NCBI RefSeq assembly: GCF_016097555.1
Contig: NC_054712.1
Span: 45,994,233-46,058,232, forward strand
Direction of reading: 5' to 3'
From: Gigantopelta aegis
Lineage: Eukaryota; Mollusca; Gastropoda; Neomphalida; Peltospiridae
Length of the DNA stretch: 64,000 bases
Below, in pieces: positions 7,601 through 63,278 of this stretch. How positions within the stretch are numbered: the stretch's first letter is position 1; every line of letters starts with the position of its first letter. The position numbers and the translations under genes are program-made. Below the pieces are notes generated by a model that saw only the letters and a list, made by a program, of their open reading frames with translations, ran no database searches and was not told the DNA's origin.

Positions 7601-10600
7601 GTGGTGTGTAACATACAATTACTAGGTCTCTGTGATACAAATAAATAATTTGTCTATATTCTGAACATCATATGGTTTTCCATCAAACTCCTGATGGGCG
7701 TATCATGTACCTCACCAGTACTCTTGTTAACTATATTTTTCAGGTCACTCAGTGTGGAGATGTTGTTGGAGAAGGCCTCAACGGGATATTCATAATGGTA
7801 CGAGTTTTAAAGAGCCACTGTCAGTCCAGTTATGTAATGAAATATGTTGGGAATACTAGTTTAATATCCGATACTGAAACATACATAAGATATTAATCAG
7901 ACTGGGGCTTTTTTTTGTGTTAAATTGGATGCACCTTAGTCTCAGACTTAGTGAGTTATTCAGTTTGTGCAGCTTGTATGAAATGTACAACTTGCCGTCA
8001 TTAAAATGACAGAATTAAAATAATAAAATGAAACACATGTTTGCTGGGTCTTGAAAAGTAGGCTTGACTATTGTGGACTTTTCACCAAAAAACAAGAACT
8101 GACATAGATTCCAGGTGACATTAAAATCTGGAATAGAGGTTTTTCATCTCTGAACTTTTAACGTTTTATGCTAATTTGTAATGTTAAAAATGTGTTTTGG
8201 CCACTGGATGTCAAACATTTGATAATTATGATAAGTCTCCAGAGAAAACCTGCTATATTTTTACATTAGCAGCAAGAAATCTTTTATATGCACCCTCCCA
8301 CAGACAGGACAGCACATACCATGTCTTTGATATATACTGGAGTACTGGTTGGGATGGGGAAAAACTTAACAGGTCCGCTGAGGAGATTCGATCCTACAAC
8401 TCAAGCTCATCAGATGAGCGCTCTACCAACTGATTTTAACGCCATCACTGTAACCAGTTTAAGATTTGAGCAGTAGATTTACCGTAATTTTAACGCCGTC
8501 ACTGTAACCAGTTTAAGATTTGAGCAGTAATTTACTGTAATTTTAACCCCGTCACTGTAACCAGTTTAAGATTTGAGCAGTAGATTTACCGTAATTTTAA
8601 CGCCGTCACTGTAACCAGTTTAAGATTTGAGCAGTAGATTTACTGTAATTTTAACCCCGTCACTGTAACCAGTTTAAGATTTGAGCAGTAGATTTACCAT
8701 AATTTTAACCCTGTCACTGTAACCAGTTTAAGATTTGAGCAGTGGATTTACCTTAATCTTATTGATAACAGTTGTTGTTTGTATTAACAGCAAAACAGAT
8801 TCAGTGAGTAAACGGAGACATTGCTACTTTAATAATATAAACCGGTATCGACTATAGTCCATTCCCAGCCTCCATGAACATTGTTTTTTGTAAATAATTT
8901 CGGTTTGATTTGACATAATGGAAAGTGAAAGTATTTTGGAAATAAAAAATAAAAAAAACCCCAAAACAACAACCCCCTCCTGCCAAAAAACCCCCAACCC
9001 TCCTCTGTGCAATTCAAAAAAACTTGTAATAAATTAAATACCATAGTGCAGGCCTGGAAATAATTATTTGGACCATGCCTGTCAAGCTGTCCTATATCAG
9101 TCAGTTTGTGCCTGTCACAAATTAAAATGTACCTGTCACCAAATTGCATGCCAGTGTGTAAATATCGAAAGCAATTATTACAAATTTTAGAATGTTATTT
9201 ATCTTTTATTAATCCTGTAATATTAATAAATGCATGAAATTATAGTATGACTGATAAATTACTTATATGGTCATTGTTATTGTATTCAGATCAACAACTG
9301 CCAATATCACTTTGGTAAGAAACCTTCAAATCTTAAGCAGCCACTGTTGTCAGAATCAGATAAGAAACAATGTTGTCAGCATAACTTTGACTTGTATCTG
9401 ATTTCGGTTTCTAGTTTCTAGTTTATGATATCGTTCATGTTATATATCCGTAGGCAGGAAACCTTCAAATGTTGAACTGTCACTACTGTCAGATAAACAG
9501 AATACATTTTCATTATCACTAAAACTTTCACTTGTGTCACCAGACTCCGAATCAGATCCACTAATCTCCTTTCTTTCAGTTTCTAGTTTCTGGTATTTTA
9601 CTTTTGGGGGTCTCTTTTTGTACATTTGCCTTTTCTTCTGATTTGGTCTCCTCCTTTTCACCTGGTTCCACAGATGAACTACAGGGCTTACATCAAATGA
9701 TCCCAGTGGGGGACCTTCCTCAACAATTCGTAGGATATTTGTTAACCTGTCCTCACCTAAAGAACACCTGCTATGACTCTTTGTTCTTTTTAAGCGAGAA
9801 AACATTCTCTCAAGTTTTGCATTACAAACTGGTACAGAAAACAAAAGTTCAATGAAAGTCAGTATATTCTTCCACTTAGTGGACTTAGAGCAGTTAAACA
9901 AAATTTTCCAGGTTTTTTTGTAACAACTTTTATGTGGCTGTAAAAAGTCCAGTGTGTACCTGACCATGTCGTGCCATTCCTCTAGAATATTTTGAGGAGA
10001 GGCATCTGGAGAAAATCCTTGTTTCAGCAATACAGGCTGAAAGTTCTCTATCAGTTCAGTAACATTGACATCCGTAAAGTCTACACCTGCCACATCAACA
10101 TTTGATTTCCAGTGTTCAGTGTTTAATATAGTGGCAACATTATTCAGCTGTATACTGCTGGCACCCTTTAGTCTGGAATCCATGGTCAGTGTACAGCATT
10201 TATAATGGTATTCTTTGCTGATTTTACATCTTCAGTGGCCTTCAGAAAACTTGTTTTAGTGAATTCTATCCCCTGATAAGTGTACACTGAATCAGTCTTT
10301 TGTAACTTTCCAAACAGAAATTTAACAGCAGGAAGATCCTCAAAAGACCTAGTTAACAATTGATCAAGAGATTCTTCAGAACACTTGATATTATGTAGAA
10401 CTCCAACACTGTCAATAACATCTTCTTGAAATGCTTTGGACAATATAGCTGCTGGGTTCAGGACATCAATAAAGAATGCAACATACAAAAGCATGCGACT
10501 AGAATTCCACTCACACAGATAACCACATATCTTTTTATGATCTTTACATTTTTTGTCACCAGCTAAGTGCTGTAGATGTTGCATGTAAACACCATATTTA

Positions 10601-13155
10601 TCCAGGACCATCCACAGTGCTGACAACTTGAAAGAAATCCACCTTGTACCACAAGCACGTTTTTGGTTTCAGAGAGCCCTCTTCAAATTCAAATGTATCT
10701 TTGACTAAATTGTGCAAAGTTTTCAGTTCCTGTAGTTTTTTGGGAGATTTATGGTAAAGGTAATACAACCTCAGCAGCATATTGTCCACCTTTTGAAATA
10801 CGGTAGTATTTAAGGCATCTTTCAGGGCCAATTCTAATTTGTGAGCCACACACCATGTATATATTAGCCATGGTGCTTTTTGTTCCAGAAGTGCTTTTAC
10901 TCCACTTTTATTACCACTGTTGACTGATGCACCATCAGCACCAAAACCAATAAGCTTTGAATAAAGTTCACTTGGCATGATACCCAGTGAGTGAAAACTC
11001 TCCTCAATTGCACCAAGTATTCCAGGTGCATCTCCCTTTTTGACATCTTTTAGGTAAAGAAATGAAAGCTTCACTTCAATTTCATCATTTTTAGAATAAG
11101 GATCAAAATACAGTACATATACAACTTCCTTTTCTGTAACAGACTTGTCTGTGCTCCCATCTGTTAAAACACTATAGAATTTGGCTTTTGAAAGATCATC
11201 ATGCAGCTTTGATGCTATAAAACTGTCCATGAATGTCCACAAATTCTGCACATTGTTTACGGTTAGTGTAAGCTTGATCACCTATATCTACACCATGGTA
11301 AGTTTCCAGTTTAATCAAATCTTCATACAGAGAATGGGAGCTCTTTTTTGGCAATAAAATATGCTATTTCAAATTTTTTTATTTGTTGAAGTTCTTGTAC
11401 TTTAGTCATACTACAAAAGCTGTCACCAAGCGTTTGTTGTTGGGGGTCTGGTTCAAATACATTGTGAAGATGTTCAACACATTCACCCCTAGCGTTCATG
11501 TCCTTGACGTAAAGTTTGTATGCATGTTTATGGTAGTTTGTTGAAGAATGGTCTCTAGCATTTGATAAGCGCATGTTTGTAGACCCTCTTATCCAAACGT
11601 CAGTGAAATCTCTACTACACCGTATCTCTTTCTCAAACTGTGTGCAGACGACACACCTCATTGCGGTCACCTCACCTTTAGAATTTGTTTCGTGTTTTAA
11701 CCAAACGGATGCATTAGTTTTTACCAAGTCGTCATTTATCCATTTTTGCAACGTTGTTGATCGTAGAGTTCTAACCTGCTTCTTTGTAATGCTGGTAATT
11801 TGTGGGGATGAATCTGATGTTTCGCTACCGACATTAGTATCACACGTACTACTACTTGTACTTGCTACACTTGTAGTTTTATCAAAAAAAGATGTTATCT
11901 TTTTCGACATTCTAAATTCTTTACCTTTACGGACACCACGTGATATCCGTTGTGCATGCACGGGCGATGACGTCACTATATTCTCGGTTTCACGTTTTAT
12001 TGTTATTATTTTTAAATATATATTGACCCGTATAAAGTATAAGACGTGTTCTGTTGATTTGTTATTTTATGTTATTTACTGACATAATTAACTTCGCTCG
12101 GGGGGGGGGGGGGCAAAAATTTTGTGCTGTCGGCTATTCGGGTCACTCGGAACACATTTGCCGATTAACGATTTTCTGATCGGACCCGCGTTCCGTATAA
12201 GCAGCGTAAGTGCAGCAGACATATTTCGCGAGACGCGATTTCTGCCAATTCGTCAAGGAAATAAAAGTTATAAATTTTTTAGTAGTACGTTTGGGTGTTT
12301 TCTTCCTTGTATTTAAATATGTTTGCGTGCAGATCTATTCGTTGTGCATAGTTGAGCAGAAATGCGTAGCGTTCACAGTGGGTTTTTTGGTGTGCAATGC
12401 GGCCCCGCTCTATTAATAGACACCAGCTGTAGTAATCGGTTGAGGTGTCTCTTCCCCCAAAATAATATTAATAATGACCGATGTGTGACCGTTCCGTTTT
12501 AGAGGTACAATAACATTCCATTAAATAATTATAATCGGAATCAATTAATTGTCAGTTAATTTTAAAGGTAAACTTTAGTGCTAAAAGACGCTTATAATTA
12601 TCACGCCGTTTGTGTCAACCATTGAACCAATGATTCGCCGAGGTGAGGTCATTAGGCGTGTCTATTAATAGACAAAAACAATTTGTGTGTTGTTTTTTCT
12701 CGTGGAAAACGTAAATGCCTTCTCGTTTGTATTTAGTTACCATAAAAACTAATGTAAGCTTCGTGCACGTGCACACTAGTCGGAAAATATTCAAAATATG
12801 CCTCTCTTTTTTTTCTCAAAATATAGAGAAATCGGCTAAGACAAAATAAAAATAGCAGTTTTTGTGCCGGACAAGATGACCGCTAATATTAAAAACGCGA
12901 CTGTCAAATCGTGACAAATCACAAATACGTACCGGACAATGACCGTGACCGGACACTTATTTCCAGGCTTGTAGTGACAAAACAATGTTCCCTGATGGGA
13001 ATGTTTATAATTTAAATTGACCAAATAACATTAATTTAATTCAATAATTAATTGGTTAATTAATTCAGACATTGGCTTCATTATTATACATATATAAAAG
13101 CATTTTCTTTTTTCAGGGTCGGAATGTTCTTGGAATAAATTCTCGGAAAAGATGA
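1543..13155 (+). CDS. COQ9: COQ9, ubiquinone biosynthesis protein (3' six exons; 5' end outside window)
   Basis: COQ9 is a mitochondrial lipid-binding protein with a TetR-like fold that presents coenzyme Q intermediates to the hydroxylase COQ7. I recognise it from ordered blocks in consecutive exons: VAHGMFPRGGVELIEYF, FIRSAVEKRLRMITPYIDQW, MDDIWFYAGDDSVDFKWYT, NTWTFLDRRLDD, and the C-terminal GRNVLGINSRKR followed by TGA. Exons are 1543-1693, 3637-3718, 5210-5314, 6116-6271, 7744-7797 and 13117-13155. All introns are GT-AG and the phases join without a break, giving about 194 residues here against 318 for the human protein, so the transit peptide and N-terminal exons lie upstream of the window. 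The last exon codes for only 12 residues and follows a 5.3-kb intron that holds an antisense hAT element. Repeats crowd three splice sites. Identification is by remembered similarity, not a search. Confidence 0.93.
2173..2297. mobile_element. small MITE (CAGGGG...TTCAC family)
   Basis: Imperfect inverted ends, CAGGGGACTCATTCAC on the left and GTGAATTAGGCCCCAG on the right. Related copies are at 30073-30171 and 35092-35145, the last much shorter. Confidence 0.5.
3375..3468. repeat. foldback hairpin
   Basis: Two arms of about 40 bp (starting ATGGAAAATACCAACC and ending TTGATATTTTCCAT) are inverted copies around a short GC-richer loop. The surrounding 2480-3370 stretch has related CTCG-rich short repeats but no coding signal. 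Confidence 0.6.
3637..3718 (+). CDS. COQ9: COQ9 exon
   Basis: One leading base completes the previous lysine codon; 27 codons follow, including RSAVEKRLRMITPYIDQWPQ. Acceptor TTTTTTCAG, donor GTTTGT. Confidence 0.92.
3775..4036 (-). repeat. SINE, tail type B
   Basis: Reverse orientation: the B tail (ACTAGAGCATATTGATTTATTATTCATCGGC) comes first, then a diverged core, then a tRNA-like head GAGCTAGACCC. It starts about 55 bp after the COQ9 exon ending at 3718. Confidence 0.75.
4085..4336 (+). repeat. 5'-truncated SINE, tail type A
   Basis: Begins at GGCCCATTGGGCTATT, so it lacks the tRNA head; the core and the A tail ending GTTAAATAAAACCCTTCC are intact. Confidence 0.85.
4452..4855. repeat. 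minisatellite, about 80 bp x 5
   Basis: Five successive units carry GGATGTTTAATTGTAT, AAAGTCTGAAATCTTGTCA and GTTGTTGTGTAACGAGTGCG. The last unit runs into the upstream target-site copy of the next SINE. Confidence 0.9.
4872..5196 (+). repeat. full-length SINE (type A) inserted in a COQ9 splice acceptor
   Basis: tRNA-like head (GATGTAGCCCAGTGG, GGGATCGATCCCC), shared core, A tail ending TTAAATAAAACATTTCCTT. The 12-bp direct repeat CCTTTCTCTCCA flanks it at 4856-4867 and 5197-5208; the right copy is the working polypyrimidine tract and acceptor of the COQ9 exon at 5210. Confidence 0.9.
5210..5314 (+). CDS. COQ9: COQ9 exon with SINE-abutted acceptor
   Basis: Thirty-five codons in phase 0, ending LMDDIWFYAGDDSVD; donor GTGAGT. 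The polypyrimidine tract TTCCTTCCTTTCTCTCCAG lies directly after the 3' tail of a SINE and is one copy of its target-site duplication. Confidence 0.93.
5404..5734. mobile_element. MITE, CAGGGCTTGACC family
   Basis: Left end CCAGGTCTTGACCGTAAG, right end CTAAGGCCAAGCCCTG, with 'gtagcc' motifs inside both halves. The same family surrounds the Tc1-like element at 39931-41971. Confidence 0.55.
5773..5955 (-). repeat. diverged SINE fragment, tail type B
   Basis: TTGTTTAACAACACTACAAGGGCA and ATTGGATGTCGAACATTT match the B tail in reverse; the core is decayed and the head is missing. Confidence 0.65.
6116..6271 (+). CDS. COQ9: COQ9 exon with repeated donor
   Basis: Fifty-two codons in phase 0, from FKWYTKRVSLAGVY to LDDLTQLASTLRN. 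The donor AAC|GTATGC and the last ~20 exon bases form the first unit of a roughly 60-bp minisatellite that fills the start of the intron. Confidence 0.92.
6245..7012. repeat. 60-bp minisatellite containing repeated COQ9 donor
   Basis: About 12-13 units of CTCAGAAACGTATGCATG, ACTTGATCATCTACATGATAA and ACACGTGTCAAATCAA. The first unit is the 3' end of the COQ9 exon plus its donor, so every unit carries a copy of exon end and GTATGC or ATGTATGC. Confidence 0.93.
7086..7640. repeat. (TCCG)n followed by a 136-bp tandem repeat
   Basis: A short TCCG run at 7086-7109 is followed by about 3.6 units of roughly 136 bp; AGGAACAACTTGGGAT recurs near 7179, 7313, 7449 and 7585. Confidence 0.85.
7744..7797 (+). 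CDS. COQ9: COQ9 exon
   Basis: Eighteen codons in phase 0, VTQCGDVVGEGLNGIFIM, matching the helix before the COQ9 C-terminus. Acceptor TATTTTTCAG, donor GTACGA. Confidence 0.88.
8205..8434 (-). repeat. SINE with a different tRNA-like head
   Basis: Reverse strand: B-type tail and core as in other copies, but the head reads (reverse complement) TTGGTAGAGCGCTCATCTGA then GTTGTAGGATCGAATC, a better canonical A and B box than the GATCGATCC head. Confidence 0.75.
8438..8757. repeat. 58-bp minisatellite, about 6 units
   Basis: Units contain CGTCACTGTAACCAGTTTAAG, ATTTGAGCAGTAGATTTACC and GTAATTTTAAC. It starts at the head end of the adjacent SINE. Confidence 0.9.
9049..12971 (-). mobile_element. 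hAT DNA transposon with degenerate transposase
   Basis: Ends CAGGCCTGGAAATAA on the left and (as reverse complement) CAAGCCTGGAAATAA on the right are terminal inverted repeats. The 5-bp direct repeat TAGTG lies exactly outside both (9044-9048 and 12972-12976), as for hAT groups with 5-bp target duplications. The 3.9-kb element sits antisense in the last COQ9 intron. Its subterminal parts contain repeated CCTGTCA or CCGGACA motifs, a poly-G run near 12101, and no second gene. Confidence 0.85.
9440..11976 (-). pseudogene. hAT transposase (ZNF862-like), frameshifted
   Basis: Four reading-frame blocks run in order on the minus strand: 11976-11323, 11281-10598, 10626-10186 and 10183-9440. The first has a TTF-type zinc finger (CVVC, then HSSTNYHKH). 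The second has the RNase H-like core (LTDGSTDKS, FGADGASVNSG, CVAHKLELAL). The third continues RWISFKLSALWMVLDKYG. The fourth holds the C-terminal hAT dimerisation region (ELLFSVPVCNAKLERMFSRL) and an acidic serine-rich tail. At least four frame changes separate the blocks, one between the first two passing through a short third frame (YEDLIKLETYHGVDIGDQ). Transposition would need trans-acting enzyme. Family assignment rests on these motifs. Confidence 0.88.
13117..13155 (+). CDS. COQ9: COQ9 terminal exon
   Basis: After TTCTTTTTTCAG, twelve codons GRNVLGINSRKR and a TGA. The ending resembles the human COQ9 C-terminus (NLTGLNQRR). It is easy to miss because it lies beyond a complete hAT insertion. 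Confidence 0.85.
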   Translation, partial: GRNVLGINSRKR

Positions 13156-23769: not shown

Positions 23770-24996
23770 TCAGTACTGGTTTTCTTCTATCCATCCCTTG
23801 AGACTGGTGGGTAATGGGAGTTGCTGGATGTGGTCGTAACGTGTGTACTGCCTAATCACAAAACGACACAGGTACTGTAAAGTTCTAACTTGAGTGAATC
23901 TAGACACAGGTTTTGTAAGTCTGACAGGGAATGATGGCGCACCAGGTGATCTTGACCGTGAGTAACAGAATATTCCAGTCTGAGAGTCAGTCATAGAATG
24001 TTCTATTAGATCTACAATGGAGGGGTAGCCCTCCGTGTCAGGTTGTGCATAGAAACTAAACATGCCATTACAGTGTTCGATACGAGTGTGCAGCGTCCTG
24101 CCGTACGAACGAAAGCTCAAGCTCAACAAATATCTTTCGTCTGAACTGTCGCGTACAAGAAAAGCACCGTCTGACTGATGCGCCAATTTTTCTTCAGCTT
24201 CATTCCGCGTGATCGGTCCCCAGTACCACCCAAATTTGGAAAGACGGAACAGCTCCTGGGTAAGGCTCCACACTTTTGGTGGTTCAGAGTCATCATATGC
24301 GAGAGCAAATTTCTGAGACATATCAAATGTTTCACAAGAATCATAAGTTGGGATAGCTTGGCATAAAAGACGTCGACCGTCAATCATTATACTGTGATGC
24401 GAACTCCCTTCTCCTGAATCTTCACTATTGCAATCACTCCTGGCACAACAGTCGGGATGAAATTTTGATATATCTTTTGTTCGGCAGCTTGGTTTGTCTC
24501 TCCTCACATCGTTACTGTCCGTATTGGAATGCATTTCACTTATCTTCGGTGATGTGTATGTCTGTCCATTCAAGTTCAAACTGTCACAGCTGCGCGAACC
24601 TGCACTTGATCTTACAGTCTTTTCACACAACACAACCAGATGTTTCCCTTTAGGTTTGCATTTCTTTGTTTCTAATTTTAATGAAGCATTTGGGCAATCT
24701 TCAACACGGTTGCTTTCACTTTCATCCGTTTTTCGATGAACCGACTGCGTAAATTTACGTCTTAAATTTCTTAGAAGTCCTATCTTGTCTCTTTTTCTGT
24801 GATTGACATCAGATTCTGTCGTTGTGTGCTCATCTGCATAGTTTTGTTGTGATAAACCTTGTGAGTCATTTGACAAATTGGAACATTCACGAGTAATCTC
24901 GGAATCGCAACTCATAACTTCGTGTTTCGGGGACGCACCACGATTGCGTCGCTGTGCTGAAAGTTTTATCCCTTTAAAGGTTATTTTCTTCATCAT
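23770..24996 (-). CDS. SOCS6: suppressor of cytokine signalling, SOCS6/SOCS7 type (intronless)
   Basis: A 408-residue ORF without introns. SOCS6/7 proteins are substrate receptors of Cullin-5/Elongin ubiquitin ligases that dock on phosphotyrosine proteins in receptor signalling. The first ~240 residues are polar and basic with no known domain. The SH2 domain is near 256-355: GWYWGPITRNEAEEKLA, the phosphotyrosine-binding FLVRDSS (Arg 282), YLLSLSFRSYGRTLHTRIEH, and SIVDLIEHS. The SOCS box follows near 363-408: the Elongin B/C contact LQYLCRFVI at 373-381 and the Cul5-box LPLP at 393-396. The SH2 and C-terminus resemble SOCS6 more than other SOCS members. I chose the first methionine of MMKK; no upstream in-frame start precedes it. 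It is head to head with GPATCH1, 363 bp apart. Confidence 0.93.
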   Translation of the reverse strand: MMKKITFKGIKLSAQRRNRGASPKHEVMSCDSEITRECSNLSNDSQGLSQQNYADEHTTTESDVNHRKRDKIGLLRNLRRKFTQSVHRKTDESESNRVEDCPNASLKLETKKCKPKGKHLVVLCEKTVRSSAGSRSCDSLNLNGQTYTSPKISEMHSNTDSNDVRRDKPSCRTKDISKFHPDCCARSDCNSEDSGEGSSHHSIMIDGRRLLCQAIPTYDSCETFDMSQKFALAYDDSEPPKVWSLTQELFRLSKFGWYWGPITRNEAEEKLAHQSDGAFLVRDSSDERYLLSLSFRSYGRTLHTRIEHCNGMFSFYAQPDTEGYPSIVDLIEHSMTDSQTGIFCYSRSRSPGAPSFPVRLTKPVSRFTQVRTLQYLCRFVIRQYTRYDHIQQLPLPTSLKGWIEENQY

Positions 24997-25359
24997 CTTC
25001 CAAGCCCATGAAACACATCAAACTGCATTTTGATGCATATTTTGTAAAGCAATTTACAGCAAAAAAAAAGAGAGATCACCTTTATAACTACGGGCGAAAC
25101 TCTCTGGAATATCTTTGAGCATGCGTAATAGAAAGCTTCCGTATTTTGACCCGTGCAGAAAACATTTTTACTAACTTTATTGGTGAAAAAGTATATTTTT
25201 CAGTATTATTAAAAACTATATTATCTATATCATTAGTTTACTATAAATAATATATGACAAACTGTAACAATCTGTTTAGTATATTTTGTAAAATATAAGC
25301 GATATATGTTAACCAATCCAACACAAGATGCATTTTGTGCGGTAAAGAAATTTTTCAAG
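24997..25359. promoter_or_regulatory. shared bidirectional promoter region, SOCS6 / GPATCH1
   Basis: Only 363 bp separate the divergent start codons, so both promoters and both 5' UTRs must lie here unless there are distant 5' exons. I see no clear TATA box at a fitting distance; a TGCGTAATAGAAAGC word occurs near 25124. Confidence 0.6.
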
Positions 25360-37400: not shown

Positions 37401-40400
37401 TTATATTTTTCAGGCGTTTGGTGTCGGAGCTCTGGAGGAGGAAGATTCAGATATTTATTCGACGGATCACCTCTCCAACTACGACATGACGATGGAGATC
37501 GAAGACAAAGACAACAACTTTGGCTGGACGGCCCCAGGAAAACACAAACCTGGTAACCAGTTTCTTATCATCTGTCATTATATTTTTACATTCTGAAATA
37601 TATTTGTGAAGTGAAATTTCATTCAGTTTAGTACGTAGGAAGGGGACATAACCTTTTTTAAATTCTTGTTTAAAGACCTGTTTTTACCTATTGGGAGGTT
37701 TACCATCATTTCCTGCATATTAACTGCAGGGTTTATATCTTTTCAAAATTATGGATGTGATTTTTCAGCTTTTGTAAAAATTTCAGCTACTTTTGTTTTG
37801 ACAAAATAGTTATCACAGTAGACTGGATTTCATCAGAAATGCTGAAAAAATTACCTTTAAGTGTGGTATAGAATTTTCAACTTCACTTCAGCATCACATG
37901 AGTATAAAACATCTCAAAATTCCACCTGTGTGCTGTTTACTGGAGCTAATTATGTGGCCATTGTTGTAGCTCACTAGCAAGCTAGCAAGTGGTCAATATG
38001 AAATACTTGTTGATGAAAGCATGTCAGTAATGGCCTAAGTGTACGGGGTGTGTGTGTGTTCGTGTTTGAGTGTGTTTGTGTGTGTGTGTGTTCGTGTTTG
38101 TGTGTGTGTTCGTGTTTGTGTGTGTTTGTGTGTGTGTTCGTGTTTGTGTGTGTGTGTGTGTTCGTGTTTGTGTGTGTGTGTGTGTTTGTGTGTGTTTGTG
38201 TTTGTGTGTGTGTGTGTTTGTGTGTGTTCGCGTTTGTGTGTGTTCGTGTTTGTGTGTGTTTGTGTTTGTGTGTGTTCGTGTTTGTGTGTGTTCCTGTGTG
38301 TTCATGTGTGTTCGTGTTTGTGTTTGTGTGTGTTCGTGTTTGTGTGTGTTCGTGTTTGTGTGTGTTCGTGTTTGTTTGTGTGTGTTTGTGTGTGTTCGTG
38401 TTTGTGTGTGTTCGTGTGTGTGTGTGTGTTCGTGTTTGTGTGTGTTCGTGTTTGTGTCTTCGTGTTTGTGTGTGTTTGTGTTTGTGTGTGTGTTTGTTTG
38501 TGTGTGTGTGTTTGTGTGTTTGTGTGTGTGTTTGTGTTTGTGTTTGTGTGTGTGTGTGTTTGTGTTTGTGTGTGTGTGTGTTTGTGTGTGTTTGTGTGTG
38601 TGTTTGTGTTTGTGTTTGTGTGTGTGTGTTTGTGTTTGTGTGTTTGTGTTTGTGTGTGTTTGTGTGTGTGTGTTCGTGTTTGTGTGTGTGTGTGTTTGTG
38701 TTCGTGTTTGTGTGTGTTCGTGTTTGTGTGTGTTTTCGTGTTTGTGTTTGTGTGTGTTCGTGTTTGTGTTTGTGTGTGTTCATGTTTGTGTTTGTGTGTG
38801 TTCGTGTTTGTGTGTGTGTGGGTTCAGGCAGGGCACCTGCACCTGCCAACACACACACACCTGCCAACACACACACACCCCATACAGGATCAAATCTTCA
38901 AATTCGGGCAAAAACGATGGAGACATTCGAGCAAAATAATCTGACCTGAAACCTTTTGACCCATTTATTTCCATCATTTATTGACAATATTAGTTATACT
39001 TTGTATATGTAGTGATTTGTTTTGAACGCTATATAGCTGTCAATGTGTGTCACTGAGGGATTAATGAATTGGTGTGTAATCATAAAATAAATAATGTTAA
39101 AATTCATTTCTGGATTATTCTCTTTCTGTTCAGCATCACCGTCATCTCTTCCTGTTGGATACCTCGGGAAACTTCTCGCAGGTTTCACGCTGTCTTCTAA
39201 ACCACTGTCCCAGAAAAAAGTGTTTAAACCTCCAAGTTTACCACGTCACTACCGACCAGTCCATCACTTCAAAAAGATCCAACCAGAGGCTGCAGTACAA
39301 CAAACGTTGAACCAATCGGATTCCATGACACAGCCAAGAAGGAAAGAGCCACTAAATGCTGTTGACCGAGGCCTCATGCTAGGAGAAACTCCCATTTTTA
39401 GTATGTATCTCATTTATAGCTTTTTATCTTTTTCTTTTTCTTTTTTTTTTTCTTTTAAGTACTGTAAACCCGATTAATATTGCAATGTATTTTTTCTGAA
39501 ATATGCACCTTAGCGCATGTTCACGATATTTAAATTTCGCGAAAGACTATTGGCATCTGTAAAAAATAATGCATGTAAAAATAATGTGTGTGTATCAAGT
39601 TCGCGATTTGAGATCGGCCGTGAACTATGCAAAATTAATACACACAATTTTTTTCTGGTTTACAGTAATAATATTCTACAAAATTGTTAATAACTTAAGT
39701 TAAAGTTAGCCCATATACTTAAGAGAGGTATGCATGGTTATTCAATGTTTTGATTACTAGCCATTTGACCCGAGAGCAAATTTTATATGCACACATTTCC
39801 CCCTCACCCTGGGTTACAATAAATATTAAGCAAATGCTCTCTAAGCACATTACATGATTTGTTTTTGAAATTACTGTAGTTCGGAGCTGATACTGGAAGA
39901 CATATCCCACACACACCTAATATTCAGTATCAGGGCTTGACCTTAGCAATAGCCCAGCGTGTTTTAGCTACCAAATGTTTGCTCAGGCTACCAGATGTCT
40001 AAACCTGGTAGTCCACCAGGCTACTATACTAGCCGTCATTAATAACGCAATTTCCTTTTAACAAAATAATATACGTTCTGGTTGGACTTCGTTGACGCTA
40101 TTCGTCAATGTACATGGTACAGTGGTACACATTATTTCAGCAGCATGTAAAGGTCGACTTCCGGCCTGTTCCCAACATATGGGGAACAACGCTAAAAACG
40201 CATTATCCGGTAAATCGCGTACACGCAACCACTTGGCGAAATAACACTTTGCACGTGCATTTCCTGATACCCGGGCACACTCAGAACACGCGGGTGGCAA
40301 TGAGTATCTCACTCCTACACGATGCCTCGGTTGAACAACGCCGATCGGAATCAAGCCATTGGCTTGTTGAATGCAGGAAACTCGCAATTGCGGGTAGCAC

Positions 40401-43400
40401 AACGGTTCCACGTGCACCCGTCAACCATTAATCGGCTCCTCAACCGATATCAGACGACAGGGACCGTCAATGACCGCCGTCGTTCGGGCACACCACGCGT
40501 AATAACCAATAGACAGGACCGGAACATACGGTTGCGGCACCTGTGCAATCGGTTTTTGACAGCCGCAAGCACTGCCAGGACTGAAGTGGGAACCAGGGGA
40601 CGACTCATCAGCGCCCGAACTGTCCGGAGACGTATTGCCGCAGAACGACTGCATTGCCACCGACCCTACCGTGGCCTATCGTCAAGCAAGACTCTTATGG
40701 GCCAGGAATGGTGGGCATTTGCGACCCAGGAGATGGCGAGATGTCATCTTCTCGGATGAATCGAGATTTAACGTGAGTGTCACGGACAGACGTCGTTGCA
40801 TTTACCGCCGTCGTGGAGAATGTGTCGCGCAGGCCTGTGTTCTGGAGAGGGACCGCTACGGGGGCGGCGGAGTCATGGTTTGGGGCGCCATCAATGCTGA
40901 CTTCCGGTCCGAACTCGTGGTGGTACAGGGAAACCTTAATGCACAACACTACGTCGACAACATCCTGCGGCCGGTCCTCCTCCCATTGATGAGACGGCAT
41001 GGCGGAAACAGGCTCGTCTTCCAGCAAGACAACGCTCGGCCGCACACTGCCAGGCGTACACAGGCGTTTCTTCGTGCCCACCATGTCACTGTGTTGGACT
41101 GGCCAGCAGTTTCCCCGGACATGAACCCAATAGAGCACATGTGGGATGAGCTGGGACGTCGTGTTCAAAACCAACCGAATCCACCACAGAACTTCGCTGA
41201 GCTGCAGCAGGCATTGCAGCATCACTGGGCAGCCATCCCACGACGTGTGGTGAGGCACCTGTGCATGTCCATGCCTAGGAGGCTGCAGGCGTGCATCGCA
41301 GCACATGGAGGTCACACGAAATACTGACCCCCATGACGTTGACATCGCCAGAGACGTTATGCGCGATTCACTGTTGGCGGCTGACAGTGCCAGTCAGATG
41401 GGCCAGTGGTTGGTCTCACTGGTGGTATCAGTTTCATTTTTGTGGGATCTTGCATAATAAAATAAACCATGATCATTTCCGAGATTGCGTTTTTATTGCC
41501 GCCTAGTATATATATTTGTTTTACACGTCCAGTTACTCTGCAATCAACATGTACAAGTGTATATTTCACGGTATATTTCCAGCGCTTCTAGAACGTTTAT
41601 AAAATCCACTAGCCATGGGATCAGTGATTTAAAACATTTACTAACCACGATTAAAATTTCACTAGCCCTACTTTACTTTGAGTTAATACAGTTTTAATAA
41701 ATAATAGTAAAAATTGGATATGTCACCTAAAGAGAGATATAGCTTACGAACACTAACCTTGGGTGTCGGGGTTGGGGTCAGGATATTCATATTTACAAAA
41801 TAGACTTAACTGCAACATTTTACAAAAAATACAAAGAAATGATTTTAATATTTTCTCTCATTTTAATATTTTTTTAAATTATGGGTCAACCCATTTTAAC
41901 TGAGGACTACCAGATTTTATAACCTGGTAGCCAGGATGGCTACCACTGAAAAAAGTTAAGGTCATGGCCTGATGACAACCGTTTGTATGAAACAGTTACT
42001 TGTTTATTTGTTACAATGCCAATGCCTCATTAATTTTAAAGAATTCAGTAGCTACAGTACATTGTTACTTGGTTTATTATGTTACAACACCTGTGTTTGA
42101 CCTCATTAACTTTAACACTCAAACAATTCAGTACATAGGCCTACAACACTTTGTATGAAACAGTTCAGGGCTTGAACTTAACGGCGGCATTGACAGCAAT
42201 TGCCGTCGTTGACATATAAATTTCCGTAGGTAGGTAAAAATGACTGTGAAAGACAAATTCTTAAATGTGAGCCCTACAGTTACTTGTTCATTTGTTACAG
42301 TGCCTGTGTTTGACTGTATTAAGTTTATCTTATACAATTACTGTTTACAAAACTGTTTTGCATTCTCGTGTGACATTTAGTTTACTTTGTGACACTGCCG
42401 AGGTGTAATGTTATTAAAGTTTTTACTTTATTACAGCGTCAGTGTTTGATCTTGTTTCAAAGGATGATAAGAAAAAGATGGAAGAGGTTAAACTGTCGAC
42501 TCATCACACAGATGGAAAAGATAACCGCGATAAATCTGATGACAATTGCATTCACAATCGTGGTCACGATCACTCGTCTACTGATCAAACAGCTGCCCAC
42601 ACTGAGGTAGAAGTTTCACAGATACTAACAAGTGCTTTGATTAAAATCTCTAAAACAGCTAAAATTACACTATTCTATTATTTCTTTATTAATATTATTA
42701 GAAGCTATAACATTTTTTTTTAATAAAGTATGTTTTTGACCATTCTGTTGGTTTGATGAAAATAGAAATTGCTATAAAAATAAATCTGTTTTCTTATAGT
42801 TTGAAGATTGACTTTCCTTTCATTCTACAAAATTGCGTCTTATTGCGAATTGTTGTCTGACAGCGTGTACAGCACAAGCCTAGAATACTTGACACAATGC
42901 TATTGTTTTAAGTAAAATTTAATGTATTTATTGTTCGGACAAAATAATGTTTTTGATGACAACCAATGTCACATTAATTATCATTAGCAGGAACGGCAGT
43001 ATTAATAGAGTTTAGTGACATGTTTGGTCCACATCAAGCGTTGTTACCTGAAGCTTGTTACTTTTGTTGAATATTGGTATTCATTACTGGGTGTATACTA
43101 CCAAATCAAATCCCATAGATGACAGTAGTAACATATGTGGCTAAAACTCCTATCTGCAGTGTATCAATCGACATCAATGCCACGGATATAAATACTACCA
43201 CCCCTCACCCTTAAAGTGAATAAGAAAAAAATTGGGGGTCAATCTGCTAATTTCTGAGATAATGGGTAGGGTCTATGACTACCCTAGTTCCGCACAAAAT
43301 TCGAGTACCTTTTTTTACAGGTACACCATATATGTTTCAAGCACAAGGCTACTTGACACAGTGGTACTAGATGAAATAAAATTGCATACATTGTTTTGCC

Positions 43401-46400
43401 CAGATGAAAGTTTTTTTTTTACAACCAACTCACTAACACTTGTGGTGTTCACTTCTTTATCAAAAGTTGGGTGCACCTCGAACTTTGACCCAGCCGGAAG
43501 TTATTTAGTTTAGTACTACCTGTAAACAAATTATAAAGTAAAGTATAAGAAATATTTTGTATCTGTTTTTCTATCAGGCCAGTGAACACAGACCTGATCT
43601 CACAAAGACTGAAACCAGTCAACCGGTTGCACTGATCAAGGGAAACCTGTCGTTTAAACCTTTCTTACGCGACTCGGAGAAACAAGCACGATACGAGTTA
43701 TACCTCAACCACATCAGACAGGGACATAAAGGTAGACTGTAATATAATTTCTCTTTACTTTAACTGTAGTTATAGTTAATTTGTATCATATTCGTAGTCT
43801 CTTTGTATCATAGGGGCGGGATGTAGCCTAGTGGTAAAGCACTCGCTTGATGCATGGTCAGTCTGGGATCGATCCCCGTCGGTGGGCCCATTGTGTTATT
43901 TCTCATTCCAGCTAATGCACTACGACTGGTATATCAAAGGCCGTGGTATTTGTTATCCTGTCTGTGGGATGGTGCATATAAAAGATCCCTTGCTGCTAAT
44001 CGAAAAAAGAGAAGCCCATGAAGTGGTGACAGCGGGTTTCTTCTCTCAATATCTGTGTGGTCCTTAACCATATTTATGATGCCATATGACCGTAAATAAA
44101 ATGTGTTGAGTGCATTGTTAAATGAAATATTTCCTTTGTATCATATGCACTGACCATCACCAGAAATTCACTGGTCAGATTTGTAGTCCTAAAAAGGATA
44201 TGAGAAGAAAAAATAATATACTTTTAATTTTTGAATACAGTAACTAGTTGTATTCTGGTAAGCAGTAAATGACCCCCCAATTGTATACATGAGTTAGAAG
44301 TATTGTGCATTTTATAGCAAATTCACAAATGAAAAATGGGTGGTAGATTTTCAGTGGAGTTCAATACACTAATAGGGTGCATCATGTTTATCTAGTAAGG
44401 TTATGTGGCATTGTGTAGTTGATCCAAGTTTATTTTTTATCATCAAGTGGATGGAAAATATTGCCACCACATCTGAGAATGATATTGATATTTACGGTGA
44501 AACCTTTTTGAGGTTGTTAATTTCAGTATTAAATTCAACATTATTGATAGTATTTCTCAGTTTATTAATTGCGTGAGGACTATTAAAAATACTCATGCTA
44601 GTAAAGTACTTTTGGCTATTACAACAGCTATTTTACCATATGTTTCACCTTACTTACAACTTACAAATTATCAAAAAAAAATCCATTGTGTTTTTTGTTC
44701 TGTTTTTTGTAGTACATTAGAATGTATTTTATGTGAAATGGAAAAGGTACATACCTCAAGAACTAGGATGATGTGTCGATGTTTGCTCTGTTTATTTATT
44801 TACAAATTGTTTCCAGACCCTTATGCTGCTGCATCAGATAAACACATGACTGAGTGGGAGCACGATAAAGAGAGAGAGGAATTTACCAAATCAGCCAAAC
44901 TGTACAAGCCGATGGTTGGTTTAATGGCGCACCGCTTCACCACAGCCAAGTACTCGGATGAAGTGGACAAAGCCGATATTCCAGTTGATGAGACGGTGAC
45001 TGATACTTAAAATTAAATAAATGGAAGGAAGAAAATGTTTTATTTAACAACACACTCAACACATTTTATTTACAGTTATATGGCGTCAGAAATATGGTTA
45101 CGGACCACACAGATATTGAGAGAGGAAACCCGCTATTGCCACTTCATGGTCTACTCTTTTCGATTAGCAGCACGGGATCTTTTATATACTCCATCCCACA
45201 GACAGTATAGTACATACCACAGCCTTTGTTACACCAGTTGTGGAGCACTGGCTGGAACAAGAAATAGTCCCATGGGTCCACCAACGGGGATCGATCCTAG
45301 ACTGACCGTGCATCAAGTGAACACTTTACCACTGGGCTGATATAAATGGGGGCCTAATTCAGTAAACAAGGTCAAAATGAATGTGTGGGGCTCTTCATTT
45401 CAAATTATATTTTGCATGAAAAATAACCCACTTTCCAAAGACCTATATGTTCACAAAACAATACTGGGCAGGCTGTAGATCAGTGGTGGAATCTTCTCTA
45501 TTTCAAGTTTATTTTGCCATGAGACTTTGTAGCGGTCGAGTGGTATGTTCTTGCGCCAAATAAATGAATGCTATAAATAGGAAGCGAAAACAACATATGT
45601 GAACTTCTGTATTTATTACATACCTTCTTTTATGTTTCACAAAAATGGTTTTTAATTTAACGTCATAACAACACTTTGTTAAATCAATGATGAAAACTCC
45701 TTTCATGAATTTGCTTAACGTTCAGAATTATACTTTGCGGCCGCCTTGTGTAATGTTTCAAATACAATGTGATGTCAGTAAATAAAAGGCGGTATTTGCA
45801 GCAAAAAGAAAAAGGGAATTCCCCATTTAAAAGTTCCGGTCCAGATTGCACCTATGTGCGATACAAAATAAATTTATCACACGGTTTCAAAATGTCTTTA
45901 TCACTATAGTAAGATTGAATAGGTATGTAATAAATAGAGGGATCAGATACCCACATAACTGGAATTTACTCAACCTATTTCATTGTTACAGATTACACAT
46001 TGCGGATTATATATTATACAAATAAGCACACAGATGACAGACAAATGGAATTTGTGCCTTATACTCAAACCCATGTGTCAAAATAACTATACTCTTCAAA
46101 AAAAGTAAAGGAACCTGAAATAGTAATGTTAATATCAACTAGTGGACTGAACATGCGTTTTGACCACAGACATCCTAGTAAAGAACATTCAAGTCTGTTT
46201 ATCAACACACCAAAACACATTTCATAGTTTGCACATGCATCACGCAGTTGCCCCGTACACATGCGTGGGGTGTCATTTTTGATTTTGACAATTTCCAGGA
46301 AGGTCCATTAATCACTGTGGAACATTATTTCTGTCAATCATTATCATTCTGTTGATCATACAGTTGTTATTGTTTTGTTTTCAGTCGTTTTTATTCTTTG

Positions 46401-58795: not shown

Positions 58796-58881
58796 TTAGA
58801 CGTGTTCGTCCACCCCTGCTTGGGTCATCAGGTCAGCGATGTTCTTCTCCAGGTCATCAATTCGGTTGCCCATATCATCAA
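58796..58881 (-). CDS. HSBP1: HSBP1 exon 3
   Basis: Starts TT after an AC acceptor; [27 protein letters not shown] and TAA. Confidence 0.93.
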
Positions 58882-61800
58882 GTGAAATTGGTTAAAGAAA
58901 ACAACAGACTTTTGACAATTGTAAAAACAAGCTGAAATAACAAATTTCATTTTTGTGTAACCCATCAAAATAATGTCCCATATTTAATGATTGAAAAAAC
59001 AAATGGGTTTCGCAAAACTATAGTTCTTGCAATTTTCAGATGCCTAAATTTACATGACTCGATTATGAGATGTAAAACCCATTTAAAAATAAAAGCAGAA
59101 GTGATATCAAAAAGCTTAATATTTTTTTATTTTACACTTCAATAAAGGTTACGGTTCTGGGCCCAATTTCACTAAACATCGTACGCCTAATTTTGGACGT
59201 AACCGTAAATCTACGACTAAACAACAGTTTTTATTACTATTATAGTACAACAAATACAGTTAAAAGTACACATATTTCATTTTCTTTTGACCGTAAAATG
59301 CTCCCATCTTATGTAATGATGTAATTTTCGGTGTGAAATAGATGCCAAACACTTGTAAATGTATGCCCGGTATAACCGCTACAGTGCTAGTCGCAGATGT
59401 AAACTTACGATGTTTTGTGAAATAGGCCCCAGTGTTCTAGATCAAATCCAGTCTAAAAATGTGAAAGTTTATGTAAATAAAATGAAAATTGGACACTTCC
59501 ATTCAGGTGTCTACAGATTCATGAAATACAACGAACAATTCTTTCCAACATAACCAAAAGGAAAATGTACAGAGCTATGGTAAAAAAAAACACAACTAAA
59601 AGCTTATTGATGCTACATTATTTACCAAAAGGTGTTATTTCATGATAGAAGATTTTACACTAATTTAGTGAATGCACCTATATATTCCTTTGCCATACTA
59701 CAATTACTAGTCTCAATGGAATTGATGCAAACAAAACTGCAGACACATTTATGGCTAACCAAAATAACCACATGATACAAGTGCCTAATAAGAAAATAGT
59801 GGATTACATTTATGTGCAAAACTAGGTTTACGACGTTTTGTGAAACTGAGCCCTGACTGTATGGATGCCACTGTGTTAAAGGATATTTCTTGTGATGATC
59901 TGGTCAGACATCTGCTGAAATTTGTCCTGCATCTGCTGCATGAGATTCTGAACCTAGAGAAAAAAAAAAAAAATATGTGTAATCAGTTGCAAGGTACATG
60001 CAGTGGACAAATAAAAATATTGCTAGACAAGACTTAAGTAGATTTCTCAATGTACTTGTCCGGTGGACCAGGGCTCACCCTGGATCAAAAATACCTGTAG
60101 CCAAAACATTAGCCAAATGGAATTTTTATTAGCCATATTGAAAATGCTTTAGCCAAATTTGTTTTACGCAGTACTGTATAGAGTATTTATATATGAAAAT
60201 GTATCTTTTTCAGCTAATTGTGTACAAACTGGAATAAATTGGAACAACAAAACCTCAATGGGGGGTAGGGGCAGTTAATATATTACTTCGATTTTTCAGC
60301 GGGAGTGGGGTGCGGTGGGGATGGGGTTATGCATTATCTTCAGAGTTTGAAGCCAGTACCCCATACACCCACCCCCATTTCTAAGGCCTATGACATTAAA
60401 TTAACAAACATACAGAAATATGGGGGTGGGTAGATGTTTATTGAGGGTAGTTGTTTTTTCTTTCTTCCTTTTTTTCCCAAATAAAAATTTGAGAGCTTTT
60501 TTTTTATCTAGAGCTCATTATTTCTTTAAATAGCAATCTTTATGTTAATTTGAATTGTTTTTTTTTTTTTTTTTTTTTTTTTTTAAGTGACCCATCAATT
60601 CCCCACCCCAAACAATTTCATAATTTATGCCATGTTGTTGCTGTTGATTTCAGCATCATGTTAAATGTTTGTTGTGATTTCTGCTTGCAAAATACTTCGG
60701 CTAAGAATGCCGACTTCACAGTATATTCCATTTATTTATTTAAAAAAAGAAAGAAAAAAAGTTACGGTAATAAAATTAAAAGTTACGGTCTTTTTAAAAT
60801 CCAGCTAATTTATTAAATGTCACCTCAGTCTTACAAATTTATAGCTAAAATTATCTAACAAATATGATTATTGTAAACTACTTTTATTCAGTGTACATTT
60901 AACTGCAATTTGTATAAATACTGCATGTTCATCTCCCGTGATAACGATCTGCATGCGTGCTCTCGACCATGGGTACAAAATTAACAAAGACAACGGAATA
61001 AACAAAAACTGCAGTTAGGTATTCACTGATGCGAACAACTATTGTTTTTCTACAAATTTACATCAAGATTTACTTTTGCGTAATCGTATTGTCCGCAACG
61101 ATGTCTCTTGACACGTGGGTGTCGGCTGACTCTGAAGCGTGACGTATATTCGCACCGAGAGCTGTCCTTAGTTTAGCCAACGAACGTTCTTCCTAACATT
61201 CGCGAACTATGTGATTGGTGTTTGTCATGTCCATTTGGTTTAATGTGAAACGCACAAACCTGTTTCACGAACGTTTTGTTTTCGCTCGGTCTGGCTGAAC
61301 TCAGCCCTTGAGATAGCCCTACATGTCTTTCGGCCCTGAACTGGCATGTGTATTAAAACTGACACGCTTTGTCAGGCTGTTTTTATTACTTTGGTTCAAA
61401 GATTTTACAAAGTAAAAATAACAAGTTACATATCTTCCACACATTGCTGTCATACATGTTGAATGCATGCCGTTAAAATTAATAACCACGATTATTAAAA
61501 TAAGCAAACATAAGGCCTACGCTGAATTCTGCATGACACCATTGTTTTGTTAACAGTTGGGAGATCGCTATTACGCTAATTGAATATTTGGTATTATTAT
61601 TATGTTTGAGGTATCGGATAGATTATGTAACCGTTTGTTCACATCAAAAGACAGAAAATGGCTTAGCCAAAATTTTAGCCACTTGCAAATTTTATTAGCC
61701 ATTTTTTATAAAAATTAGCCAATGGCTAATTTGGCTACCGACAGCGCGAGCCCTGGTGGACAAATGAAAAAGTCTGCTTATTTCTACTGATATATATACA

Positions 61801-63278
61801 CACACACACACACACACATAGAGAGGCATAGACAGAAACATAGATAGAATGAGAGTTGGTCATCAATGAGGAGCTTTAGCGATGGCAGGGAACATTTTAT
61901 TCAGTATTGCGTCACGATTCGCAACTCAAGTTTCAGAGATCGCTATACAAGTTTATAATATTAAACAGTAGTTGCTAATCAATTTTCAACTCACTAGAAA
62001 TATTGCTAATCATGATTTCGAAAACCAAATGTTCCCTGGATGGCAGACATCAGGGCTTGAACTTATGAATTTGTCTCCCACAGCAATTTTTAAAAGAATT
62101 GCAATGGGTGAAACAGTCCACCGGCAGCAATTTTGAGCCTGCCTATGGCAAAAAAATTTAAAGTGACATTTGCAGCAAATAAACCTGACGAAATGCTATC
62201 TTGTTATATGTAGATATCTTTTAAATGTGCAAATGTGAAATATTGGCAAATAATGTACACCAGCAGTGTTCTACGTTGCGACCAAAATGTTGGCGTGGCG
62301 ACTGACTGAATTTATTATCGTCGCCAAAAATGTCTAAGGATTAAATTATTTGCCATGTGCGTTCAGAGTCCTTGCAGCAAAAACAAATGAAATTTGTTGA
62401 CATCATTGTGCAGTCAGAACATTTCACTATTTACGAAGTTGTCCGATTGATCACTGTGAATTCCGTATTAAATGTCGGTACAATTCGGAACTCATCGTTG
62501 ATTTTAGTAATTTGGCGAAGAAAACAATCCAGATACTTACAACACATTCATAAATGATACAAAATGAGTAGTGTCGCACTGTGGCGAGTAACATTTTAAG
62601 CTTGGCTAGTAAATTTTGTTTGTCCACTAGCCAAAGAAGAGTAAGTTATAAAACCAAGTGTAGAACACTGACCTGGTGTATACATTTCGCCATTGTTGAG
62701 CTTTTCTGATGGCACATTAGTATTAATAGGTAATAAAGTCAAACACGATTATTGTTGTATTATTTAAGCAGGAATCTTAGCCTATTTGATTTGAGGCAGA
62801 AATCCCATGTTTTCATTATAGAATGATTTTATAAGTCAAAATGTTTGTCTAGCTCTTGAACAGCACATTTTAACCTGTCTTTCATCCGACACTCATGACC
62901 TTTTATTTATTTATTTATTTAATTATTATTGTAGTTTGGCTACCACTACCCGTTATCCATAAATACTACCAGTAAAATATTGCTTAAATGTCTGTTATTA
63001 CACAAAGTAGGACAAATATAGCAACTTTCTAAAATTCATCACAACCAAAGACGACTTTTGACAAGTTCACACACGAATTTTGGTTGACATTTCCTCATCT
63101 CCAAAACAAACCATCATCACCACTGTACTAACAATATCTATCAGCGTAACATGCGCATAGTAAACTAACTAGGTCACAATATGTCTAAGCGAAGCTGTAT
63201 ACTTACAAACGTTGTCAGATCCTGGATGTTTTTAGGATCCGCGCTGTTCGACATGTAATCTTTTGACAAATCGGCCAT
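58796..63278 (-). CDS. HSBP1: HSBP1, heat shock factor-binding protein 1 (3 exons, complete)
   Basis: HSBP1 is a small, all-helical, trimeric coiled-coil protein that binds the trimerisation domain of HSF1 and dampens the heat-shock response; it is nuclear and cytosolic. Minus-strand exons: 63278-63207 ([20 protein letters not shown]...), 59953-59887 ([20 protein letters not shown] and TR) and 58881-58796 ([20 protein letters not shown], then AGVDEHV and TAA). Total 74 residues (human 76). Heptad hydrophobics run through residues ~22-68. Intron 1 (GT-AG) is 3.25 kb with a 1.7-kb element inside. Intron 2 begins ATATCCTTT and ends TTTCAC: an AT-AC intron; only this junction (A|TT = Ile) gives the family's TR-IDDM reading. 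GPATCH1 is convergent on the left. Confidence 0.93.
58882..59886 (-). promoter_or_regulatory. U12-type AT-AC intron of HSBP1
   Basis: On the gene strand the 5' splice site is ATATCCTTTAA, matching the minor-spliceosome consensus RTATCCTTT exactly. The 3' end carries TTCTTTAAC, one change from the TTCCTTAAC branch consensus, nine bases before the junction, and terminates in AC. Confidence 0.9.
59157..59432. mobile_element. MITE (CTGGGCCCAATTTCACTAAAC family) inside the U12 intron
   Basis: CTGGGCCCAATTTCACTAAAC and CATCGTACG on the left; CGATGTTTTGTGAAATAGGC and CCCAG on the right. A further end (TTTGTGAAACTGAGCCCTG) occurs near 59838-59856, 18 bp below exon 2. Confidence 0.65.
59887..59953 (-). 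CDS. HSBP1: HSBP1 exon 2
   Basis: Acceptor [26 protein letters not shown] and TR plus one base. Without the AT-AC splice the frame would stop after three codons (NIL, TAA). Confidence 0.93.
60069..61755. mobile_element. 1.7-kb non-autonomous hAT-like element with 6-bp target duplication
   Basis: CAGGGCTCACCCTGG on the left, GCGCGAGCCCTG on the right, GTGGAC repeated exactly outside (60063-60068 and 61756-61761). 'TTAGCCA' words lie near both ends. No transposase ORF; a T(n) run at 60557-60584. Confidence 0.85.
61796..61819. repeat. (CA)n microsatellite
   Basis: About 12 CA units. Confidence 0.95.
62263..62672. mobile_element. 410-bp MITE, CAGTGTTCTAC ends
   Basis: CAGTGTTCTACGTTG on the left, CAAGTGTAGAACACTG on the right; GGCGAC/GTCGCC and GGCTAGTAAA words inside. 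Confidence 0.7.
63207..63278 (-). CDS. HSBP1: HSBP1 exon 1
   Basis: Twenty-four codons, [20 protein letters not shown] then LTTF; donor GTAAGT, phase 0. Confidence 0.92.

What the first reader, a model, noticed from the sequence alone, without database searches (positions are those of the whole stretch)
58882..59886. AT-AC minor-spliceosome intron in HSBP1
Read on the minus strand, HSBP1 exon 2 has no GT donor: the conserved frame runs to ACAAGAA and is followed by ATATCCTTTAA, the exact U12 5' splice motif. The intron ends in AC, with TTCTTTAAC nine bases before it, in the range of U12 branch sites. Only this AT-AC junction gives the conserved I-D-D-M reading. AT-AC U12 introns are rare, and a standard gene finder would truncate this protein (NIL, stop) or drop the last exon.
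Basis: partly seen in the sequence, partly recalled or inferred. Interest (0 to 1): 0.75.

Follow-up and report, generated by a model that had tools for sequence, protein, structure and literature searches.

The report
Rare-type AT-AC intron in HSBP1
A small, conserved animal gene (HSBP1) contains an intron with the unusual AT-AC ends and signals that a second, rare splicing machine recognises; it is a convincing example of a known kind of intron, in a gene whose protein could be cut short by a gene finder that expects ordinary introns.

Summary
On the minus strand HSBP1 has three coding exons: 63278-63207, 59953-59887 and 58881-58796 (74 aa). Intron 1 is GT-AG. Intron 2 (59886-58882, 1005 nt, phase 1) begins ATATCCTTT and ends AC; TTCTTTAAC ends 9 nt before its 3' end. 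Of 225 donor/acceptor pairs that keep both HSBP1 halves, none is GT-AG or GC-AG, and only the AT-AC pair 59886/58882 restores TRIDDMGNR. That junction scores 1.5e-25 against Pfam HSBP1. The same genome encodes U12 (1 match), U11 (2) and U6atac (3) snRNAs above Rfam cut-offs. U12 and U6atac can pair with the branch site and donor. U4atac and CENATAC could not be tested: the genome machine stayed busy.

The reading as a U12-type AT-AC intron is well supported. It is a new member of a known kind: about a quarter of human minor introns are AT-AC. Not shown: RNA evidence, conservation in other species, the organism's identity, and whether databases already list HSBP1. Five full-text searches found no relevant paper; supplements were not readable. 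Modest interest.

The parts
63207..63278 (-). HSBP1 coding exon 1, [24 protein letters not shown] (a second in-frame ATG at 63254)
   Evidence: open frame with DPKNIQDLT, followed by GTAAGT; phase 0
59954..63206 (-). intron 1, 3253 nt, ordinary U2-like GT-AG (GTAAGTATAC...TTTTTTCTCTAG)
   Evidence: 6 of 9 mismatches to the U12 donor, 18 of 20 pyrimidines before the AG; contrast to intron 2
59887..59953 (-). HSBP1 exon 2, [22 protein letters not shown] plus the first base of the Ile codon
58882..59886 (-). intron 2, 1005 nt, AT-AC, phase 1, U12-type
59878..59886 (-). U12-type 5' splice site ATATCCTTT
   Evidence: 0 mismatches to the (recalled) consensus; can pair with AAAGGA of the genome's own U6atac
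58891..58899 (-). U12-type branch element TTCTTTAAC (branch A 58892 or 58893, inferred)
   Evidence: 1 mismatch to recalled TTCCTTAAC, 9 nt from its end to the intron end; can pair with GUAAGGAA of the genome's own U12
58796..58881 (-). HSBP1 coding exon 3 to the stop, (I)[27 protein letters not shown]
59157..59432 (.). MITE-like element inside intron 2: 27-nt terminal inverted repeats, 276 nt in all; not part of the splicing signals
   Evidence: arms 59157-59183 and 59406-59432, 89% complementary; copy number not obtained

Best explanation
Intron 2 of an intact HSBP1 gene is a U12-type (minor-spliceosome) AT-AC intron. The expected path, inferred by analogy, is that U11 recognises ATATCCTTT and U12 pairs with TTCTTTAAC; U6atac then replaces U11 at the donor, the lariat forms on 58892 or 58893, and the 3' cut after the AC at 58882 joins A|TT into the Ile codon of T-R-I-D-D-M. 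Shown here: the sequence signals, the uniqueness of the junction, the restored protein, the snRNA genes and their pairing potential. Inferred: that splicing takes place this way. If the intron is retained, translation ends after ITRNIL (49 aa) and the second half of the conserved core is lost.
For: Pfam HSBP1 gives 89.2 bits (1.5e-25) for exons 2+3 joined, against 37.6 bits for the read-through form. The joined exons align without a gap to the solved HSBP1 chain 3ci9 over 38 residues, across the junction. None of 225 pairs keeping both halves is GT-AG or GC-AG. Donor 0 mismatches, branch 1 mismatch, 9 nt to the end. Phase 1, in keeping with the bias of minor introns away from phase 0 (passage). 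U12 128.2 bits, U6atac 93.4 bits three times, U11 98 and 89 bits, all above Rfam cut-offs in the same assembly (U12 and U6atac). Duplexes with the genome's own U12 (-6.3 kcal/mol) and U6atac (-6.4; 16 of 500 shuffled donors do as well). Intron 1 of the same gene lacks these signals.
Against: No RNA reads were available. The branch element is one base off and pairs more weakly with U12 than the consensus (-6.3 against -9.0). The 20 nt before the 3' end hold 15 pyrimidines, so 'no polypyrimidine tract' is not a clean contrast with intron 1 (18 of 20). U4atac and CENATAC were asked for but did not complete. No orthologue from another species could be compared (searches found none).
Confidence: 0.95

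Rival explanations
1. An AT-AC intron removed by the major (U2) spliceosome.
For: U2-type AT-AC introns exist (passage); 15 of 20 bases before the 3' end are pyrimidines.
Against: The donor is the exact U12 motif, not an ATAAGT-like U2 donor (type recalled); a U12 branch-like element lies close to the 3' end.
Confidence: 0.02
2. A broken or misassembled gene: the real donor or acceptor was GT/AG and is altered here, or the locus is a pseudogene.
For: There are no reads to check the assembly, and no second copy was found to compare.
Against: The frame is intact over three exons, with ATG and stop. The U12 motif extends seven bases beyond the AT, so even a GT there would be a U12-like donor. The acceptor side has its own U12 branch-like element.
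Confidence: 0.02
3. A chance AT-AC register; the transcript really uses another exon and a different protein end.
For: A GTAAGT donor lies inside the intron at 59408, so other isoforms are possible.
Against: The stop after NIL lies upstream of that donor; the rough joint chance of the U12 signals in the five allowed registers is about 5e-9; only this junction gives the conserved Ile.
Confidence: 0.01

Closest known systems
U12-type (minor) AT-AC introns (A-type, AT-AN)
   Same: ATATCCTTT donor, AC end, U12-like branch element near the 3' end, phase 1, one such intron beside an ordinary intron; snRNAs of the minor spliceosome present in the genome.
   Different: Nothing essential; the branch element is one base off the recalled consensus. 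The papers my searches could reach do not name HSBP1 as a minor-intron gene.
[quoted passage not shown]
   Same: Small coiled-coil protein; Pfam match over profile positions 7-51 of 51 with exons 2+3 and a gapless alignment to 3ci9.
   Different: Ends in VDEHV soon after the conserved core; the coding sequence found here has three exons. The gene structure in other species was not compared.
Minor introns as U6atac-limited switches (Younis et al. 2013, PMC3728624, passages read)
   Same: Retention would give a truncated product, so protein output could depend on minor splicing.
   Different: Not shown for HSBP1 or for this animal; analogy only.

Membership tests
U12-type AT-AC intron | U12 5' splice site ATATCCTTT at the exon end | tested here: met
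   0 mismatches at 59886 (consensus recalled)
U12-type AT-AC intron | branch element like TTCCTTRAC close to the 3' splice site (optimum 11-13 nt, passage) | tested here: met
   TTCTTTAAC, 1 mismatch, branch A 10 or 11 nt from the intron end (at or just under the optimum)
U12-type AT-AC intron | no distinct polypyrimidine tract | tested here: inconclusive
   15 of 20 pyrimidines against 18 of 20 in intron 1
U12-type AT-AC intron | AT...AC termini fixed by the reading frame | tested here: met
   only register giving TRIDDMGNR; no GT-AG or GC-AG among 225 frame-keeping pairs
U12-type AT-AC intron | minor-spliceosome snRNAs U11, U12, U6atac in the organism | tested here: met
   U12 and U6atac
U12-type AT-AC intron | U4atac snRNA and the AT-AN factor CENATAC present | not tested
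   requests not answered: U4atac; CENATAC
U12-type AT-AC intron | removal depends on the minor spliceosome | not testable with these tools
   needs RNA and knock-down
HSBP1 family | Pfam PF06825 above its curated cut-off | tested here: met
   89.2 bits against 28.6, E 1.5e-25

The most novel reading that the evidence does not exclude
The AT-AC intron works as a regulatory valve: output of full-length HSBP1 (inhibitor of HSF1 and assembly factor for the WASH complex, passages) is set by minor-spliceosome capacity, which in human cells rises with p38 stress signalling through U6atac. That would tie the minor spliceosome to the heat-shock response in this animal.
Probability: 0.08. Interest if true: 0.55.

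Novelty: new member of a known kind. Interest (0 to 1): 0.22.

Why it matters
It is a clean, checkable minor intron in a tiny conserved gene: within the scanned positions no GT-AG or GC-AG splice recovers the protein, so the case is useful for correcting gene models. It also gives a simple test of whether AT-AC splicing controls a stress and endosome regulator. As an intron it is ordinary for its class.

Tried and rejected
GT-AG and GC-AG alternatives: none among 225 frame-keeping pairs. A second ATATCCTTT in the window at minus 44201 was looked at. I take it as a chance match: 1.4 exact matches are expected, and the coding sequence I think I recognise near it (SUGP1-like, from memory; Pfam gave no match for the open frame 44501-45007) reads on the plus strand. 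HSBP1 relatives in viral contigs and genome contigs: 23 and 123 stretches matched a pattern, none confirmed, so no orthologue could be compared. Rfam at gathering thresholds over the window: nothing.

Literature: HSBP1 with U12-type, HSBP1 with minor intron, and HSBP with U12 and intron gave no papers. HSBP1 with minor spliceosome, and HSBP1 with U12, gave one paper each; by their titles in the listing both are expression studies, and I did not open them. (two or more of five terms) listed 40 of 482 and 5 of 328 papers; none of those listed held the HSBP1 term or 'heat shock factor binding'. One search (heat shock factor binding, spliceosome, intron retention) found none. Supplements could not be read, so gene lists in tables and the minor-intron databases were not checked.

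Not obtained in the end: U4atac, CENATAC, copy number of the MITE-like element, DNA of the two U11 loci (so pairing of U11 with the donor was not computed).

Full report
The gene. Read on the minus strand, the window holds an intact HSBP1 gene. Coding exon 1 (63278-63207) encodes [24 protein letters not shown] and is followed by GTAAGT. Exon 2 (59953-59887) encodes [22 protein letters not shown] plus one base, and exon 3 (58881-58796) the rest, ending VDEHV-stop. Exons 2 and 3 joined score 89.2 bits (1.5e-25, cut-off 28.6) against Pfam HSBP1 and align without a gap over 38 residues to HSBP1 chain 3ci9. A six-frame search of the 1.15-Gb assembly with the 50-residue query gave 2 matches (3 candidates scored), both exons of this gene, so no second HSBP1 locus was seen.

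The intron. Intron 2 is 59886-58882, 1005 nt, phase 1. It starts ATATCCTTTAAC and ends TTCTTTAACCAATTTCAC. Donor positions 59936-59787 and acceptor positions 58980-58801 were paired exhaustively. Of these pairs, 225 keep both conserved halves in frame: none is GT-AG or GC-AG, three are AT-AC, and five are the same junction slid by one base each. Only AT-AC at 59886/58882 gives TRIDDMGNR; the other four registers give L or N in place of I. Intron retention gives a 49-aa product ending ITRNIL.

Signals. The donor matches ATATCCTTT exactly. The element TTCTTTAAC differs from TTCCTTAAC in one base and ends 9 nt before the intron end, so a branch A is 10 or 11 nt from the end; the optimum given in a review is 11-13 nt (passage). 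Both consensuses are recalled. The exact donor 9-mer occurs at 2 of 127,984 positions of the window on both strands, this one included. AC ends with a branch element of at most one mismatch 7-13 nt upstream occur at 8 of 127,920 positions; shuffles of the last 40 nt show such an element in 77 of 20,000. The joint chance over the five registers is about 5e-9; this is rough, since it uses the same window. Intron 1 is a contrast: donor GTAAGTATA (6 of 9 mismatches to the U12 donor), no branch-like element in its last 40 nt better than 4 mismatches, 18 of 20 pyrimidines before its AG. Intron 2 still has 15 of 20 pyrimidines, so that feature does not separate them cleanly.

The machine. The same assembly has one U12 match (128.2 bits), three U6atac matches (93.4 bits each) and two U11 matches (98 and 89 bits), all above the Rfam cut-offs. 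The tool's 14 control genomes gave none, but it does not say here whether any of them has a minor spliceosome, so I put no weight on that. U12 and U6atac were confirmed by an Rfam scan of their loci. The genome's U12 carries GUAAGGAA, which can pair with the branch element (-6.3 kcal/mol, against -9.0 for the consensus). Its U6atac carries AAAGGA, which can pair with the donor (-6.4; 16 of 500 shuffled donors reach this, so this pairing alone is modest evidence). U4atac and the AT-AN factor CENATAC could not be looked for: none of the 5 and 11 requests was answered (listed in the membership test).

How it works. By analogy with the described pathway (passages), U11 and U12 would define the donor and branch site, U6atac would replace U11, and removal of the intron would join the Ile codon. 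CENATAC depletion in human cells causes retention of AT-AN introns above all (passages). That this animal removes the intron this way is inferred, not shown.

What is new. AT-AC minor introns are well known: about 26% of human minor introns in one paper, 24% of minor introns in another. The finding is a correct, well-supported new member of a known kind. Whether the intron is conserved elsewhere, and whether it regulates HSBP1 under stress (U6atac and p38; HSBP1 roles), is open.

Sources: PMC10639083, PMC8280824, PMC3728624, PMC7367187, PMC3584512 and PMC8047104, passages only. Other papers were seen in search listings only.

Noticed in passing
window 59157-59432, inside intron 2: MITE-like element with 27-nt terminal inverted repeats (89% complementary); a related 18-nt piece lies at 59828-59845 near the donor (94% to 59405-59422). 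A GTAAGT site on the minus strand begins at 59408, at the edge of one arm. Copy number in the genome not obtained.
   Followed up: partly
window 23770-25017, minus strand: Open frame of 415 aa with an SH2 domain and a SOCS box: a SOCS-family gene.
   Followed up: partly
window 40560-41327, plus strand: Transposase open frame with a DDE_3 domain.
   Followed up: no
window 9440-12066, minus strand: Pieces of a possible hAT-like transposon: a hAT dimerisation match below its cut-off (20.1 against 21.4 bits) and a zf-C17orf113 zinc finger; the middle piece has no Pfam match.
   Followed up: no
L004, L005, L006 (G000 contig C4): Three U6atac matches with the same score (93.4 bits) lie within about 1.35 Mb on one contig; in human cells this snRNA is short-lived and limiting.
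   Followed up: no
window 37974-38949: Long GTGTGT/CACACA-rich repeat with open frames of 173-310 aa in all six frames; low-complexity sequence, not taken as a gene.
   Followed up: no
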